In this document: positions 10,335 to 16,255 of the stretch, piece by piece
How the letters are laid out: each line of letters opens with the position of its first letter
Numbering within the stretch: the stretch's first letter is position 1
Source of the DNA: SAR86 cluster bacterium
GTDB taxonomy: Bacteria > Pseudomonadota > Gammaproteobacteria > Magnimaribacterales > Magnimaribacteraceae
Assembly: GCA_016777005.1 (NCBI GenBank)
Contig: JADHSF010000002.1
Location: 1-64,000 of the forward strand
Direction: 5' to 3'
Length of the DNA: 64,000 nt
Made by a program: the position numbers and the translations under genes
The notes under the pieces: generated by a model
The model's database searches: none
Seen by the model: only the letters and a program-made list of their open reading frames with translations
What the model was told of the DNA's origin: nothing

Positions 10335-10955
10335 ATGAGTCTATATGAAAAATATGTTCTGCCAAAATTTCTTAATTGTGCATGTGGATCAAAGCCAGTT
10401 GCCCGTCAAAGGGAGAAGGTGGTTCCTCTAGCCGAAGGGAAGGTGCTTGAAATCGGTATCGGCTCAGGCCTTAACCTACCTTTTTATGATAAGACTAAAG
10501 TAGATGAAATCTGGGGCCTAGATCCTTCTGAGGAGCTGAGTGAGATGGCTAGAGCAGTTGCAATCCAAGAAGGCATGGAGGTTAACTTCATATCTTCTGG
10601 CGCTGAAGAGATTCCTTTGCCTGATGATCATTTTGATTCTGTTTTAATCACCTACACCATGTGTACTATCCCAGAAGTCATTAGAGCTAATACAGAAATT
10701 AGAAGAGTTCTTAAAAGCCAAGGAAAGATGATATTTTGTGAGCATGGAGCCGCACCTGATGACAATATAAGAAAATGGCAAAAAAGAATAAATCCTTTTT
10801 GGGGAAAGATTGCTGGCGGATGTAATATTAATAGAAATATTCCCTCATTGATCCAAGAATCAGGCTTCGATATTATTGAGATGGAAGAAATGTATCTTCC
10901 TAATACACCCAAGATCGCCGGGTATAACTTTTGGGGTTACGCGGTAAGTAAATAA
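10335..10955 (+). CDS. Class I SAM-dependent methyltransferase (METTL7/UbiE-like)
   Basis: The 206-aa protein contains SAM motif I LEIGIGSGLNLPFY, an acidic residue after beta2 (GLDPSEEL), motif II SVLITYTMC and the late FCEHG strand. The GCNINRNIPSLI region is typical of METTL7-like methyltransferases. Members methylate lipids, thiols or quinone precursors, so the substrate here is open. The stop overlaps the following EF-hand esterase start by 1 bp (TAATG), so the two are coupled. Confidence 0.8.
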   Translation: MSLYEKYVLPKFLNCACGSKPVARQREKVVPLAEGKVLEIGIGSGLNLPFYDKTKVDEIWGLDPSEELSEMARAVAIQEGMEVNFISSGAEEIPLPDDHFDSVLITYTMCTIPEVIRANTEIRRVLKSQGKMIFCEHGAAPDDNIRKWQKRINPFWGKIAGGCNINRNIPSLIQESGFDIIEMEEMYLPNTPKIAGYNFWGYAVSK

Positions 10956-12034
10956 TGAAAGTCAGATGGGTCCTTTTAAGCCTGTTCCTGATAACAATCG
11001 CTTCTCAATATAAGACGATCCTAGCTTTTGTTGGGACAGAAATCGCCATCTACAGCATCAAACAACTAGATAAAAATTCTGATGGTCAAATAATAAAATC
11101 AGAGTGGCCGGGATTGGGATTCTCACTAATAGATTTTGATAGAGACGGCATTGCCAGTGACGAAGAGTTAAGATCTTTTCTGAGAGAGTACTCTAAAGAA
11201 TTTTCTTGGGAGAATGAGGCAAGTGAAAGGTTTGATTTGCCTGAACAGTTAAAACATGAATCCTTCATCAGTAGTTCAATGCAGATTCCAGTTGGATACT
11301 ACATTTATATTCCAGATTCTTATGTTAAAAATCTAGAAAAAGAATTTAGAACCGTTTATTACCTTCATGGCGGAAGACCAGGCAACGAAGCAAGGTCGGT
11401 TTTTTTGTCATCCTTCATTCACGAACTCTTCATGAGTGAATCCTTAGATCCTGCTTTATATATTTTTGTAAATGGCGGAGAGCTTAGTCATTACAACTCC
11501 GATGAGATGGGTTCTTATGGAGAGGACGTTTTTATAAATGAGTTAATTCCACATATAGATGCAACATACCGAACAATAGCAAAAAGATCAGGAAGAGGTC
11601 TGGAAGGTTTCTCGCAGGGGGGACGAGGAGCAACAAGATATATGTTCAAATATCCTGAGCTCTTTGGAACAGTCTCTGCGGGAGGAGGGTCTTATATGAT
11701 TGAAAAAATGATACAAGACAACAAAGGATATGAGGATGACCCAAGAGGGGTAAAATCCGATGTCTATTATGTCGGAGAAGGGAATGATACCTATTCCTTG
11801 GCTAAGAAGCACAAGGAGTCAGGCAAGGAGACTCCTAAGTTACTACTCTGGTCCGGAGCAGAAGATCCAAATTTATCTAGTATTAGAGAGTACAAGTCTT
11901 ATTTAGATGAATTAAAGATTGACCACGAATTTCTTCTTGCAAAAGAAGTAGATCACAATCCTTTTATTTTTTATGAAAAATTAGGAAAAAATTTGATAAA
12001 TTTTCATCAAGGAGAGATAAATTATGTTCATTAG
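10955..12034 (+). CDS. EF-hand-containing secreted esterase (Fes/esterase D-like alpha/beta hydrolase)
   Basis: An N-terminal hydrophobic segment (about residues 4-28) acts as signal peptide or anchor. Two canonical 12-residue EF-hand loops follow, DKNSDGQIIKSE and DFDRDGIASDEE (about residues 39-70). The rest is an esterase domain with YYLHGGRPG (oxyanion region), the nucleophile elbow GFSQGG, an Asp in SGAEDPN and a His in VDHNPF. It probably hydrolyses esters outside the cytoplasm with calcium-dependent folding. Its 3' end overlaps the next esterase by 11 bp. Fusion of EF-hands to this esterase fold is unusual. The substrate is unknown. Confidence 0.75.
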   Translation: MKVRWVLLSLFLITIASQYKTILAFVGTEIAIYSIKQLDKNSDGQIIKSEWPGLGFSLIDFDRDGIASDEELRSFLREYSKEFSWENEASERFDLPEQLKHESFISSSMQIPVGYYIYIPDSYVKNLEKEFRTVYYLHGGRPGNEARSVFLSSFIHELFMSESLDPALYIFVNGGELSHYNSDEMGSYGEDVFINELIPHIDATYRTIAKRSGRGLEGFSQGGRGATRYMFKYPELFGTVSAGGGSYMIEKMIQDNKGYEDDPRGVKSDVYYVGEGNDTYSLAKKHKESGKETPKLLLWSGAEDPNLSSIREYKSYLDELKIDHEFLLAKEVDHNPFIFYEKLGKNLINFHQGEINYVH

Positions 12035-12935
12035 GCTAGCAATTGTATGTTTCTTATTTCATGCTTCGACGCTCTTAAGTGACCAAAGGATAATTATTCA
12101 TGACGGTATAGAAAGGGAATACATAATCCACATTCCTATGAATCTTACTGAGGATTCACCGATTGTATTTGTTATTCATGGTTTCACAGGTTCTGCTAAA
12201 CAGATCATGGAGTATTCTGGAATGAATGCGATCGCAGACAAAGAAAGCTTCATTGTTGTTTACCCTCAAGGAACTATAGATAGTAGCGGAAATACTTTTT
12301 TTAATGTTGGGTATGAATTTCATAATGGCTCGAAAATTGATGATGTATCTTTTATTCGAGAACTTTTTATCTCTCTTTCTCAAGAATATAGTCTCAAAAG
12401 AAAACGTGCTTTTGCTACCGGAATGTCTAATGGAGGTGATATGAGTTATCTTTTAGCTTGTACTTCTGCAGACTTATTTAGAGCAGTTGCTCCTGTAGCA
12501 GGTTCATTAATGAACAAGATTAAAGATAAATGTGAGACTCAATACCCCGTACCAATTTTTGAAATACATGGCACCGGAGATCAAATTACATTGTTCGATG
12601 GTGATATGAAAAATACTGGAGGCTGGGGAGCTTATTATGACTTACCTTCAACAATTAATTTTTTCGCCGAGGCATACAATTTAGACAAAAAAAATATTAA
12701 AGAGATTATTAGTAAAAAGGACGGTGCTGAATATGATATTTTCTTTGAGCGCCATTGGTCCGATAATTCTGAAGAAGAAGTTTGGATGTATAAGATAATT
12801 GATGGAAGGCATGTGTGGCCAGGTATAAGGATTAATTGGTGGAATAGCCCCATTTTCTGGTACTACTTTGGGTCTGGGAATGAAGATATCAATGCTTCTG
12901 AAGAAGTATGGGCATTCTTCAAAAAATATTTATAA
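12024..12935 (+). CDS. Secreted PHB depolymerase / feruloyl esterase-like (LpqC family) hydrolase
   Basis: The 303-aa product begins with a signal peptide (MFIRLAIVCFLFHASTLLS). It contains FVIHGFTGSAKQ (oxyanion hole), the nucleophile motif GMSNGGDMSY, FEIHGTGDQITLFDG (acid) and GRHVWPG with the catalytic His. This is the LpqC/esterase PHB family acting on polyesters or feruloyl/acetyl esters. An ATG with GGAGAG upstream lies within the end of the preceding esterase gene, so the methyltransferase and both esterases form one transcription unit. It is convergent with the Anbu gene. Confidence 0.82.
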   Translation: MFIRLAIVCFLFHASTLLSDQRIIIHDGIEREYIIHIPMNLTEDSPIVFVIHGFTGSAKQIMEYSGMNAIADKESFIVVYPQGTIDSSGNTFFNVGYEFHNGSKIDDVSFIRELFISLSQEYSLKRKRAFATGMSNGGDMSYLLACTSADLFRAVAPVAGSLMNKIKDKCETQYPVPIFEIHGTGDQITLFDGDMKNTGGWGAYYDLPSTINFFAEAYNLDKKNIKEIISKKDGAEYDIFFERHWSDNSEEEVWMYKIIDGRHVWPGIRINWWNSPIFWYYFGSGNEDINASEEVWAFFKKYL

Positions 12936-12942
12936 ACAGTAT

Positions 12943-13677
12943 TTAATTATTATCTTCCCAGCTGAACTTAGGTAATGAATGTATGGCATCTGTGAGTTTA
13001 TGTGCCCAAGTATCAGATAGTTCTTTGAAATATGGCGATTCGAGTTTGTATCTTCCTTGATAATCTAAATGCATCTGATCTTTCTTGTAGACTACAAAAT
13101 CTATTGGGGGTCCCACGGTTAAATCGCTCCTCATTGTTGAATCGAGTGATAGAAGAGCAACCCTAGCCGAGTCTGCAATAGGTGTTTTTTTGTTGATCAT
13201 CCTATCTAAAATAGGTTTGCCATATTTTGTCTCTCCTATTTGAAGGAAAGGATTATCTGTAGAAGCGTAAATATAATTACCTTCAGGATAGATCAATAAG
13301 ATATTTGGTTCTTGATTCTTTATTTGACCCCCAAGAATAAAATAAGAACCCATAAGTGCTGATTGATTTTGAACTTCTAATGATTGACTATAGATCTCAG
13401 TATTTAGTTTCCCTATGTATGCTGCAACAGCTTCTAGATCTTCACAAAGATTAAGATTTATTTCTGGAGAAGGAGAGTTTATATCTTTTTCTAACTGATG
13501 ATAAACCGCTTGAGAGGTAGCTAAATTGCCTGCTGTTAAGATTACAAATGCTCTATCTCCAACATTGTAGGTAAACATCTTAGAATAGGTATTGACATTG
13601 TCTAAGCCGGCATTCGTTCTAGAATCAGAGGCGAAGACAAGTCCTTCATTTACTTTTATGGCTAGGCAATAAGACAT
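12943..13677 (-). CDS. Anbu, proteasome-type peptidase (bacterial proteasome homologue)
   Basis: The 244-aa sequence starts MSYCLAIKVNEGLVFASDSR and continues TNAG, then SKMFTYNVGDRAFVILTAGN, matching the Anbu (COG3484) family. In that family, removal of Met exposes residue 2 as the N-terminal nucleophile. Here residue 2 is Ser where the family usually has Thr. The DSRTNAG motif and the Lys in SKMF are present, so the Ntn-hydrolase site looks otherwise intact. Anbu genes are typically linked to circularly permuted ATP-grasp and alpha-E genes, and these are exactly its divergent neighbours. The substrate is unknown. Ser can act in Ntn hydrolases, so activity is possible but unproven. Confidence 0.9.
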   Translation of the reverse strand: MSYCLAIKVNEGLVFASDSRTNAGLDNVNTYSKMFTYNVGDRAFVILTAGNLATSQAVYHQLEKDINSPSPEINLNLCEDLEAVAAYIGKLNTEIYSQSLEVQNQSALMGSYFILGGQIKNQEPNILLIYPEGNYIYASTDNPFLQIGETKYGKPILDRMINKKTPIADSARVALLSLDSTMRSDLTVGPPIDFVVYKKDQMHLDYQGRYKLESPYFKELSDTWAHKLTDAIHSLPKFSWEDNN

Positions 13678-13886
13678 GTTTATATAGAAACATGCAATCT
13701 ATATGCCAAAAATACTTTTTATACCTGTTATTCTAGTTTCCTTTTAAAATACTTTACTTAAGATGCTTTTAGGTACTTTCATGCCTTGATTCTTATTCCT
13801 ATCCCTGGATACAGAGCACTCTTATAGTGCGTTTCAGCGCAATAAAGATCAAAATATATTGGCTTCTTAATTGCATACAATTATTT
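13678..13886. promoter_or_regulatory. Divergent intergenic region between the Anbu gene and the ATP-grasp operon
   Basis: About 209 bp separate the Anbu ATG from the preferred ATP-grasp ATG, one of the longest gaps outside the rRNA operon. It must hold the promoters for both directions. A perfect inverted repeat GCACT-CTTAT-AGTGC sits at 13816-13830 and is a possible operator or hairpin. I could not assign clear -35/-10 pairs. Confidence 0.4.
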
Positions 13887-15335
13887 ATGACAAATATTTG
13901 GAAGAAATACTCAGCTTCCCCTTTTTTTGATGAGTATTTTAACTCATCAAAAAGATTTAGACCTCACACAAGTCAGATAGGAAAGTATATAGGTTCATTA
14001 AATTCTAAAGAATTAGATGACATAAATAATGCTACAGAATCAGCAATCAAATCAATGGGCATTTCTTTTAGAGTTTATTCGGAGGAATACATTGATGGCC
14101 AAGATCGTTCTTGGCCCTTAGACTTTATTCCGCGTCTTATAAGAAAAAAGGAGTGGAACAAAGTCGAGTCAGGCTTGAAACAAAGGGTTAAGGCACTAAA
14201 TCTTTTTATAGAAGACTGTTATAACGATCAAAAATTTCTTTCAGAAAGCGATATGGAAGAGTCCTTAGTAACAGATTCTCCTGCTTTTAAAGAGTATTGC
14301 CTAGGAATGAAACTTAAACATAATTCTTGGTCAAGTATTTGTGGATCTGACTTGATTAAAGATAGAGATGGTATTTTTTATGTTTTAGAGGATAACCTTA
14401 GAGTGCCCTCTGGCGTGGGTTATATGCTAGAGAATAGATCTATTATGAAGAGAGTATTTCCGGATCTTTTTAAGCACTATGGCGTTATGCCGGTTAGTTC
14501 ATATCCATCTAAGCTATACGAAACACTAGTATCTCTAAGTTACTCAAGAAGTAAGCAGCCCGAAATAGTTCTTTTAACTCCCGGTATATACAATTCTGCT
14601 TATTTTGAACATTCATATTTAGCCCAACAAATGGGAATAGATATTGTGCAAGGATCTGACTTAGTAGTCCTAAAAGATAACTTTGTTTATAAAAAGACCA
14701 TAGAAGGTCTTGTGAGAGTTGATGTGATTTATCGTCGTATTGATGACGATTATCTTGACCCTATGAAGGGCAATAAAAATTCTGTTTTAGGTGTGGCCGG
14801 TTTAATTGATTGCTGGAGGAAAAAAAATGTATCTATTATCAATGCCCCAGGATGCGGAATAGCAGATGATAAGGCTGTTTATTCTTTTGTACCGGAGATG
14901 ATTAGATACTTTTTGAAGGAAGAGCCTTTGATAAGTAACCTTAAAACCTATCTGATGACGGACAATAAAAGCCGAGACCTAATATCAAAACAATTTAAAG
15001 ACTTTGTAATTAAACCAGTAGCTGAGTCAGGCGGTTATGGCATAGTCATAGGAAAAAATGCTTCGCCAAAAGAAAAAAAACAAACCTTACAATCCATAAA
15101 AAATGATCCACGTAATTACATAGCACAGCCATTAGCCTTGCTATCTACTTCACCTACTTTTGATAAGGGCTCTATTGAGCCAAGACACTTAGACTTAAGG
15201 CCTTTTGTCTTAAGTGGTGAAAAAAGTTATGTAACTGTCGGAGGTCTAACAAGAGTAGCATTGCAAAAAGGCTCAACAGTTGTAAATTCGTCTCAAGGAG
15301 GCGGCAGTAAAGATACTTGGATAGTGGATAAATAA
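13887..15335 (+). CDS. Circularly permuted ATP-grasp protein (COG2308)
   Basis: The family start (SPFFDEYFNSSKRFRPH), the GVMPVSSYPSKLYETL region and a late FVIKPVAESGGYGIVIGKN nucleotide-binding segment mark a circularly permuted ATP-grasp of the DUF404/DUF407 type. Such proteins are predicted peptide or amide ligases. The ORF track start at 13827 is a GTG that adds a hydrophobic 20-residue leader not seen in relatives. I prefer the ATG at 13887 (482 aa). Neither has a good ribosome site. The alpha-E gene follows after 2 bp, so the two form an operon divergent from the Anbu gene. Confidence 0.85.
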   Translation: MTNIWKKYSASPFFDEYFNSSKRFRPHTSQIGKYIGSLNSKELDDINNATESAIKSMGISFRVYSEEYIDGQDRSWPLDFIPRLIRKKEWNKVESGLKQRVKALNLFIEDCYNDQKFLSESDMEESLVTDSPAFKEYCLGMKLKHNSWSSICGSDLIKDRDGIFYVLEDNLRVPSGVGYMLENRSIMKRVFPDLFKHYGVMPVSSYPSKLYETLVSLSYSRSKQPEIVLLTPGIYNSAYFEHSYLAQQMGIDIVQGSDLVVLKDNFVYKKTIEGLVRVDVIYRRIDDDYLDPMKGNKNSVLGVAGLIDCWRKKNVSIINAPGCGIADDKAVYSFVPEMIRYFLKEEPLISNLKTYLMTDNKSRDLISKQFKDFVIKPVAESGGYGIVIGKNASPKEKKQTLQSIKNDPRNYIAQPLALLSTSPTFDKGSIEPRHLDLRPFVLSGEKSYVTVGGLTRVALQKGSTVVNSSQGGGSKDTWIVDK

Positions 15336-15337
15336 TT

Positions 15338-16255
15338 ATGTTGAGTAGAGATGCTGAGCATTTATATTGGCTATCAAGATATGTTGAGCGAGTAGAAAAT
15401 ATAGCCAGGTTAATAAATGTAAATGCAGAATTAATGTTGGACTTTCCAGGTGACAAAACCCTTGGCTGGAAATCATTGATAGATACTTTAGACACACTCG
15501 AAATATATGAAAGAAAATATGTAACTTTCAAGGAAGCAAATGTAATAAATTTTCTTTCTTCCGAAATGAAAAATCCTAACTCAATTAAAAATTGTCTCAT
15601 TAAAGCATCTTACAATGTTAAGGAAACAAGAGATTACTTGCCTCCTGCGTCTACGGAACAGATTAATAATCTCTTAAATGAATTTAATTTGAGTCAATCT
15701 AAGTTACTAAGAAATAATGCTAAGGATCTATATAAACTTATAGAAGGATCGCAGAGATTTTTTGGAATTATTAATGATAATTTCTCTAATGGGTTTGTAT
15801 ATGAATTTATCCGGCTTGGGAGATATATAGAGAGAGTAGATATGGTTTCAAGAACACTTGATACTTTGACGGTGTCTAAGAAAGAATCCCAGACTCACGA
15901 TTTTGCTACTTTGGAGTGGGCAAGTCTGCTCAGAAATTTATCAGCTTATGCGGCCTACCGAGATGAAGCAAAAGGTGAGATAGTTAGAGCTAATGTCATA
16001 AAATTCTTATTTAAGAATAAAGGGTTTCCAAGATCCATCAATACTTGTCTTAGGGAGATAGACAGAGGCGTTGCAGCACTCCCAAATAACAAGCTTTTGA
16101 AACAAGAAGTTTACAAACTCATCGAAAGGGTCAGTTATTCCCGGATTGAGAATTATGATGATGATCAGTTACATCATTTTCTAGACAGTTTTCAGAAGAA
16201 GGTTAACCACTTCGACCAGAGAATTCACAAAAGCTGGTTTCAGCTTCATGGATAG
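15338..16255 (+). CDS. Alpha-E domain protein (COG2307)
   Basis: The 305-aa all-helical protein opens with MLSRDAEHLYWLSRYVERVE, the standard start of the alpha-E (DUF403) family, and contains the second signature FIRLGRYIERVDMVSR. The family is consistently fused to or adjacent to circularly permuted ATP-grasp proteins. It is thought to assist in amide-bond formation, but no biochemical role is established. It starts 2 bp after the ATP-grasp stop and is surely co-translated. The transglutaminase-like gene usually found next is absent; a convergent TauD-like gene begins 1 bp beyond. Confidence 0.9.
   Translation: MLSRDAEHLYWLSRYVERVENIARLINVNAELMLDFPGDKTLGWKSLIDTLDTLEIYERKYVTFKEANVINFLSSEMKNPNSIKNCLIKASYNVKETRDYLPPASTEQINNLLNEFNLSQSKLLRNNAKDLYKLIEGSQRFFGIINDNFSNGFVYEFIRLGRYIERVDMVSRTLDTLTVSKKESQTHDFATLEWASLLRNLSAYAAYRDEAKGEIVRANVIKFLFKNKGFPRSINTCLREIDRGVAALPNNKLLKQEVYKLIERVSYSRIENYDDDQLHHFLDSFQKKVNHFDQRIHKSWFQLHG

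What the first reader, a model, noticed from the sequence alone, without database searches (positions are those of the whole stretch)
12943..16255. Anbu / ATP-grasp / alpha-E module without transglutaminase, with Ser nucleophile
Seen: an Anbu proteasome homologue divergent from a circularly permuted ATP-grasp plus alpha-E operon. Known: these families co-occur, usually with a transglutaminase-like protein, and are predicted to make and remove a peptide tag or peptide metabolite. Here the transglutaminase slot is empty and Anbu residue 2 is Ser, not Thr. Inference: a minimal ligase/protease pair whose product is still undescribed.
Basis: partly seen in the sequence, partly recalled or inferred. 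Interest (0 to 1): 0.8.

Follow-up and report, generated by a model that had tools for sequence, protein, structure and literature searches.

The report
Nitrogen-starvation Anbu module without transglutaminase
A three-gene set in a very common ocean bacterium (a proteasome-like enzyme facing a peptide-bond-making enzyme and its partner) lacks its usual transglutaminase partner everywhere in its marine lineage, uses serine instead of threonine at its active site, and carries switches suggesting it is turned on when nitrogen runs out.

Summary
An Anbu gene (12943-13677, minus, Met-Ser-Tyr-Cys) lies divergent from a circularly permuted ATP-grasp gene (start corrected to 13887) and alpha-E (to 16255). 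The host groups with SAR86-type genomes. No transglutaminase domain occurs in its genome (82.6% complete), in any of 60 relatives, or in 25 SAR11/other marine Alphaproteobacteria carrying the same Anbu clade. Anbu and the ATP-grasp occur in exactly the same 22 of 61 genomes, in several unrelated neighbourhoods. SAR11 has also lost alpha-E, leaving Anbu plus ATP-grasp. Elsewhere a transglutaminase is adjacent in only 21 of 46 Anbu-bearing gammaproteobacterial genomes, so an empty slot alone is not exotic. Ser2 is not an error: it is fixed in about a dozen species of this lineage, against Thr in 55 of 55 other aligned Anbus.

P. putida and Burkholderia operons of this kind are reported as NtrC-controlled. 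Best reading: a nitrogen-starvation-induced amide-bond ligase/hydrolase pair, a new variant of the known Anbu system; substrate unknown.

The parts
12943..13677 (-). Anbu, 244 aa; Ser2 (mature Ser1) in place of Thr, Asp18 and Lys33 kept
   Evidence: Pfam PF00227; PDB 5loy E 3e-65; alignment columns
13693..13708 (-). sigma-54-type promoter TGGC-N7-TTGCA for Anbu
   Evidence: conserved in the lineage
13816..13830 (.). NtrC-type palindrome GCAC-N7-GTGC (GCACTCTTATAGTGC)
   Evidence: only one in the window; in 14 of 14 lineage loci examined; same motif before glutamine synthetase/ntrBC in two relatives
13860..13875 (+). sigma-54-type promoter TGGC-N7-TTGCA for the ATP-grasp; TTGC lies 12 nt before the start codon in nearly every lineage member, so the transcript is predicted leaderless
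13887..15335 (+). circularly permuted ATP-grasp ligase (start corrected from GTG 13827)
   Evidence: (PDB 3n6x, E 1.9e-171)
15338..16255 (+). alpha-E protein, 305 aa, 2 bp after the ATP-grasp stop
   Evidence: PF04168 E 1.5e-69; alignment

Best explanation
This is a transglutaminase-free Anbu module under nitrogen-starvation control. When nitrogen is short, NtrC bound at the central palindrome would activate RNA polymerase-sigma-54 at both divergent promoters (inferred from conserved sites plus the presence of both regulator genes). The ATP-grasp, helped by alpha-E, would make an amide bond through an acyl-phosphate (inferred from family chemistry). Anbu, with its initiator Met removed, would use Ser1-Lys32-Asp17 as an N-terminal-nucleophile amidase on that bond or a related one, recycling amino-acid nitrogen (inferred). 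The transglutaminase is not needed for the core cycle in this marine clade, and alpha-E is not needed in its SAR11 branch.
For: Anbu and ATP-grasp occupy exactly the same 22 of 61 genomes and stay divergent across several unrelated neighbourhoods. PF01841: 0 of 61 relatives, 0 of 30 marine genomes with this Anbu. Alpha-E: 0 of 25 SAR11/alpha, 5 of 5 SAR86. The marine Anbus form one clade, support 100/100; the ATP-grasp tree separates the same marine group from other gammas. Purifying selection: dN/dS about 0.03-0.05 where dS could be estimated. Two sigma-54 sites plus an NtrC palindrome: relaxed score >=6 in 8/8 loci at each gene against <=0.3% of shuffles; the combined pattern occurs once in 1.2 Mb, here, with no reversed-control hit. 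sigma-54 (E 7e-36) and NtrC (687 bits, cut-off 558.6) are in the genome. The palindrome precedes glutamine synthetase-ntrB-ntrC in two relatives. Published: P. putida PP_2685-2688 induced in nitrogen limitation and attributed to NtrBC (PMC7801951); B. cenocepacia operon genes NtrC/sigma-54-dependent (PMC5491218); yeast proteasome T1S mutant active (PMC4792962).
Against: No Anbu showed peptidase activity on standard substrates (PMC6376114), no substrate is known, and pull-downs of a Yersinia operon found no complex. The sigma-54/NtrC sites are absent by the same scan from the f2, f3, SAR11 and other alpha loci, so this regulation is lineage-specific within the clade. In the own genome the glutamine synthetase region has only imperfect palindromes. 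Everything about regulation is sequence inference.
Confidence: 0.55

Rival explanations
1. Protein tagging and untagging: the ATP-grasp/alpha-E pair adds a peptide or amino acid to proteins and Anbu removes it, like a deubiquitinase (the prediction cited from Iyer et al. 2009 in PMC6376114).
For: Strict pairing of ligase and hydrolase; RimK/RimB offers a ligase-peptidase precedent (PMC12239564).
Against: No dedicated tag gene or fixed fourth gene near the module across neighbourhoods; no substrate known. Compatible with nitrogen control.
Confidence: 0.25
2. Anbu is a general peptidase giving amino acids during nitrogen starvation; the ATP-grasp has a separate role and shares only the promoter region.
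For: Nitrogen-limitation induction in P. putida (PMC7801951); exposed Thr1 binds proteasome inhibitors in P. aeruginosa Anbu (PMC5666114).
Against: No AAA+ unfoldase partner and no peptidase activity found (PMC6376114); complete co-retention with the ATP-grasp, even in two-gene SAR11 loci.
Confidence: 0.2
3. Ser2 has no functional meaning: a neutral, tolerated Thr-to-Ser drift. (This rival concerns the serine only and is compatible with the best explanation.)
For: T1S proteasomes keep activity at reduced rate (PMC4792962); [quoted passage not shown] subtilis CodW (Kang 2003, cited in PMC5506225).
Against: Fixed in 9 of 9 lineage sequences through several Ser codons, never back to Thr, while 55 of 55 others have Thr; two other lineage-specific changes accompany it (positions 170, 173). 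This shows fixation, not adaptation.
Confidence: 0.5

Closest known systems
Anbu operon of Pseudomonas putida (PP_2685-2688)
   Same: Proteasome-beta-like gene and operon of the same kind; control attributed to NtrBC, induced in nitrogen limitation (PMC7801951)
   Different: The P. putida operon has a transglutaminase (PP_2686); here it is absent genome-wide, Anbu is divergent with its own sigma-54 site, and the nucleophile is Ser
Yersinia bercovieri Anbu operon
   Same: Anbu with Thr1/Asp17/Lys32 site, ATP-grasp releasing phosphate from ATP (PMC6376114)
   Different: Four-gene operon with transglutaminase; Thr nucleophile
PDB 3n6x, putative glutathionylspermidine synthase
   Same: Same circularly permuted ATP-grasp family, E 1.9e-171
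   Different: The deposited molecule name is only putative
CodW/HslV with N-terminal serine (B. subtilis)
   Same: Natural Ser nucleophile in a proteasome homologue (title of Kang 2003, cited in PMC5506225)
   Different: HslV family with an AAA+ partner, not Anbu

Membership tests
Anbu | Full-length sequence similarity to solved Anbu structures, including the C-terminal region | tested here: met
   phmmer 5loy, residues 2-241, E 3e-65
Anbu | No propeptide; catalytic residue directly after the initiator Met | tested here: met
   Start ATG-Ser; alternative upstream starts in relatives precede the predicted transcription start
Anbu | Nucleophile Thr1 | tested here: not met
   Ser in 9 of 9 lineage sequences. 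Read as a variant inside the family, since the tree nests it among Thr Anbus
Anbu | Catalytic Asp17 and Lys32/33 | tested here: met
   Invariant in 64 of 64
Anbu | Open split-ring or helical assembly | not testable with these tools
   needs purified protein
Anbu/ATP-grasp/alpha-E/transglutaminase operon | Circularly permuted ATP-grasp and alpha-E adjacent | tested here: met
Anbu/ATP-grasp/alpha-E/transglutaminase operon | Transglutaminase-like gene | tested here: not met
   0 of 61 genomes, 0 of 30 marine Anbu genomes. Frequent but not universal in the known system
NtrC/sigma-54 regulon | -24/-12 promoter with GG-N10-GC | tested here: met
NtrC/sigma-54 regulon | NtrC palindrome, and sigma-54 and NtrC genes present | tested here: met
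NtrC/sigma-54 regulon | Induction under nitrogen limitation | not testable with these tools
   needs expression data

The most novel reading that the evidence does not exclude
In some of the most abundant ocean bacteria the irreducible Anbu system is just two enzymes, an ATP-grasp that makes and an Anbu that cleaves one amide-linked nitrogen metabolite or tag. Transglutaminase and alpha-E are accessories, and one SAR86-type lineage retuned it with a Ser nucleophile and twin sigma-54/NtrC promoters, forming an undescribed nitrogen storage-and-release cycle.
Probability: 0.25. Interest if true: 0.78.

Novelty: new variant of a known kind. Interest (0 to 1): 0.55.

Why it matters
Anbu's function is unknown despite several crystal structures. 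Nature has here removed the transglutaminase, and in SAR11 alpha-E as well, so the core can be tested with two proteins. The NtrC/sigma-54 sites say when to look for the product. Natural Ser and Thr forms of one enzyme in sister families also offer a direct test of why proteasome-like enzymes use threonine.

Tried and rejected
Sequencing error for Ser2: rejected, present in independent assemblies of about a dozen species. Transglutaminase elsewhere in the genome: not found. A replacement fourth gene: neighbours differ between families. Solved relatives of alpha-E: none credible. sigma-54/NtrC sites as a general mark of the clade: rejected, confined to the f1 lineage. Ser2 linked to transglutaminase loss: rejected, as f2, f3 and SAR11 lack it but keep Thr. 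Three papers consulted for alpha-E or transglutaminase links gave little.

Full report
Observation. The three genes are present as described. Anbu (12943-13677, minus) matches five Anbu sequences of the PDB over its full length. The ATP-grasp is circularly permuted type 2 with a solved homologue, 3n6x; alpha-E follows 2 bp downstream. The listed ATP-grasp start (13827) should move to 13887: homologues carry in-frame stops upstream, and the conserved TTGC element sits exactly 12 nt before the homologous start codon in nearly all lineage members.

Host. No name is given for the window's genome. This is an inference.

Transglutaminase. PF01841 and PF08379 are absent from the own genome, PF01841 from all 60 relatives and from 30 marine genomes with this Anbu: 25 SAR11/other Alphaproteobacteria and 5 SAR86. 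The same search found PF01841 in 44 of 46 larger gammaproteobacterial Anbu genomes, which is a working positive control. But only 21 of those 46 have one within 12 kb of Anbu, so an empty slot next to Anbu is ordinary; genome-wide absence across a whole clade is less so. Genome reduction may explain part of it.

Cohesion and history. Anbu and ATP-grasp are found in the same 22 of 61 genomes, physically linked and divergent, with flanking genes that differ between families. In the Anbu tree SAR86, SAR11 and other marine Alphaproteobacteria form one clade (100/100), with the SAR11/alpha branch inside SAR86 (97/87) (row L120 there is a SAR11 sequence mislabelled GAM by me). The ATP-grasp tree separates the same marine group from other gammas, but keeps SAR86 as one side of a branch at modest support (80). 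Transfer between classes is likely; its direction is not settled. Alpha-E is absent from all 25 SAR11/alpha genomes searched and present in all 5 SAR86.

Serine. Nine of nine aligned lineage sequences have Ser2; 55 of 55 others, in the sister families, SAR11 and other gammas, have Thr. Asp18 and Lys33 are invariant in 64 of 64. Several Ser codons are used. Pairwise dN/dS is about 0.03-0.05 where dS could be estimated; many pairs were saturated. Mutant Ser1 yeast proteasome is active but slower (PMC4792962). Function of this Anbu is therefore plausible, not shown.

Regulation. The 209-bp intergenic region holds TGGC-N7-TTGCA facing Anbu (13693-13708) and facing the ATP-grasp (13860-13875), and one GCAC-N7-GTGC palindrome (13816-13830). 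Four exact sigma-54 motifs occur in the window against 0.43 expected; two lie here. In 14 lineage loci examined (some overlap the same genomes) the palindrome is in all 14, the ATP-grasp sigma-54 site in all 14 and the Anbu site by the strict pattern in 13. At a relaxed score of 6 or more, 8 of 8 loci have both, against 0.3% or less of shuffles. The combined pattern has one hit in the 1.2-Mb genome. sigma-54 and NtrC genes are present. In G005 and G008 the palindrome lies just before a glutamine synthetase gene followed by ntrB and ntrC, and before a Gcw_chp gene with a sigma-54 site at the same spacing. In the own genome the glutamine synthetase-ntrBC region carries imperfect copies. The f2 family has sigma-54 but no such sites here; f3 mostly lacks sigma-54, and the SAR11/alpha genomes tested lack it. 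Published work gives the same kind of control for P. putida and B. cenocepacia operons of this type (PMC7801951, PMC5491218), and marine metagenomes associate these domains with urea metabolism (PMC3597751).

Mechanism. Shown here: gene content, linkage, loss pattern, Ser fixation, promoter motifs. Inferred: induction in nitrogen starvation, amide synthesis by the ATP-grasp, hydrolysis by Anbu at Ser1. Unknown: the substrate, and whether it is a metabolite or a protein tag.

Noticed in passing
L064, L070, L085 and other SAR11 loci: SAR11 (Pelagibacteraceae) carry a two-gene Anbu/ATP-grasp module with no alpha-E and no transglutaminase in the genome; no paper describing it was found in the library searched.
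   Followed up: partly
L213:1501-1660, L214:1501-1565, L206: A Gcw_chp (TorF-like) gene next to an S49 peptidase gene has the same NtrC palindrome and sigma-54 site at the same spacing, a probable further NtrC target in this lineage.
   Followed up: partly
genome G036 (C1:833391-833573): In the f3 family sigma-54 is mostly undetected; G036 keeps only a 91-aa open frame matching the C-terminal part of the DNA-binding domain, possibly a decaying gene.
   Followed up: no
13860-13889: The start codon of the ATP-grasp falls 12 nt after the TTGC of the sigma-54 site in nearly all lineage members, predicting a leaderless transcript from a sigma-54 promoter.
   Followed up: partly
L189 (G181), L113, L148: Some other gammaproteobacterial Anbu loci have a GCAC-N7-GTGC palindrome upstream, hinting that NtrC control is wider than this lineage.
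   Followed up: partly
10955-12935: Two predicted esterases (one with EF-hand-like stretches, one like short-chain PHA depolymerases) flank Anbu throughout the f1 lineage but not outside it.
   Followed up: no
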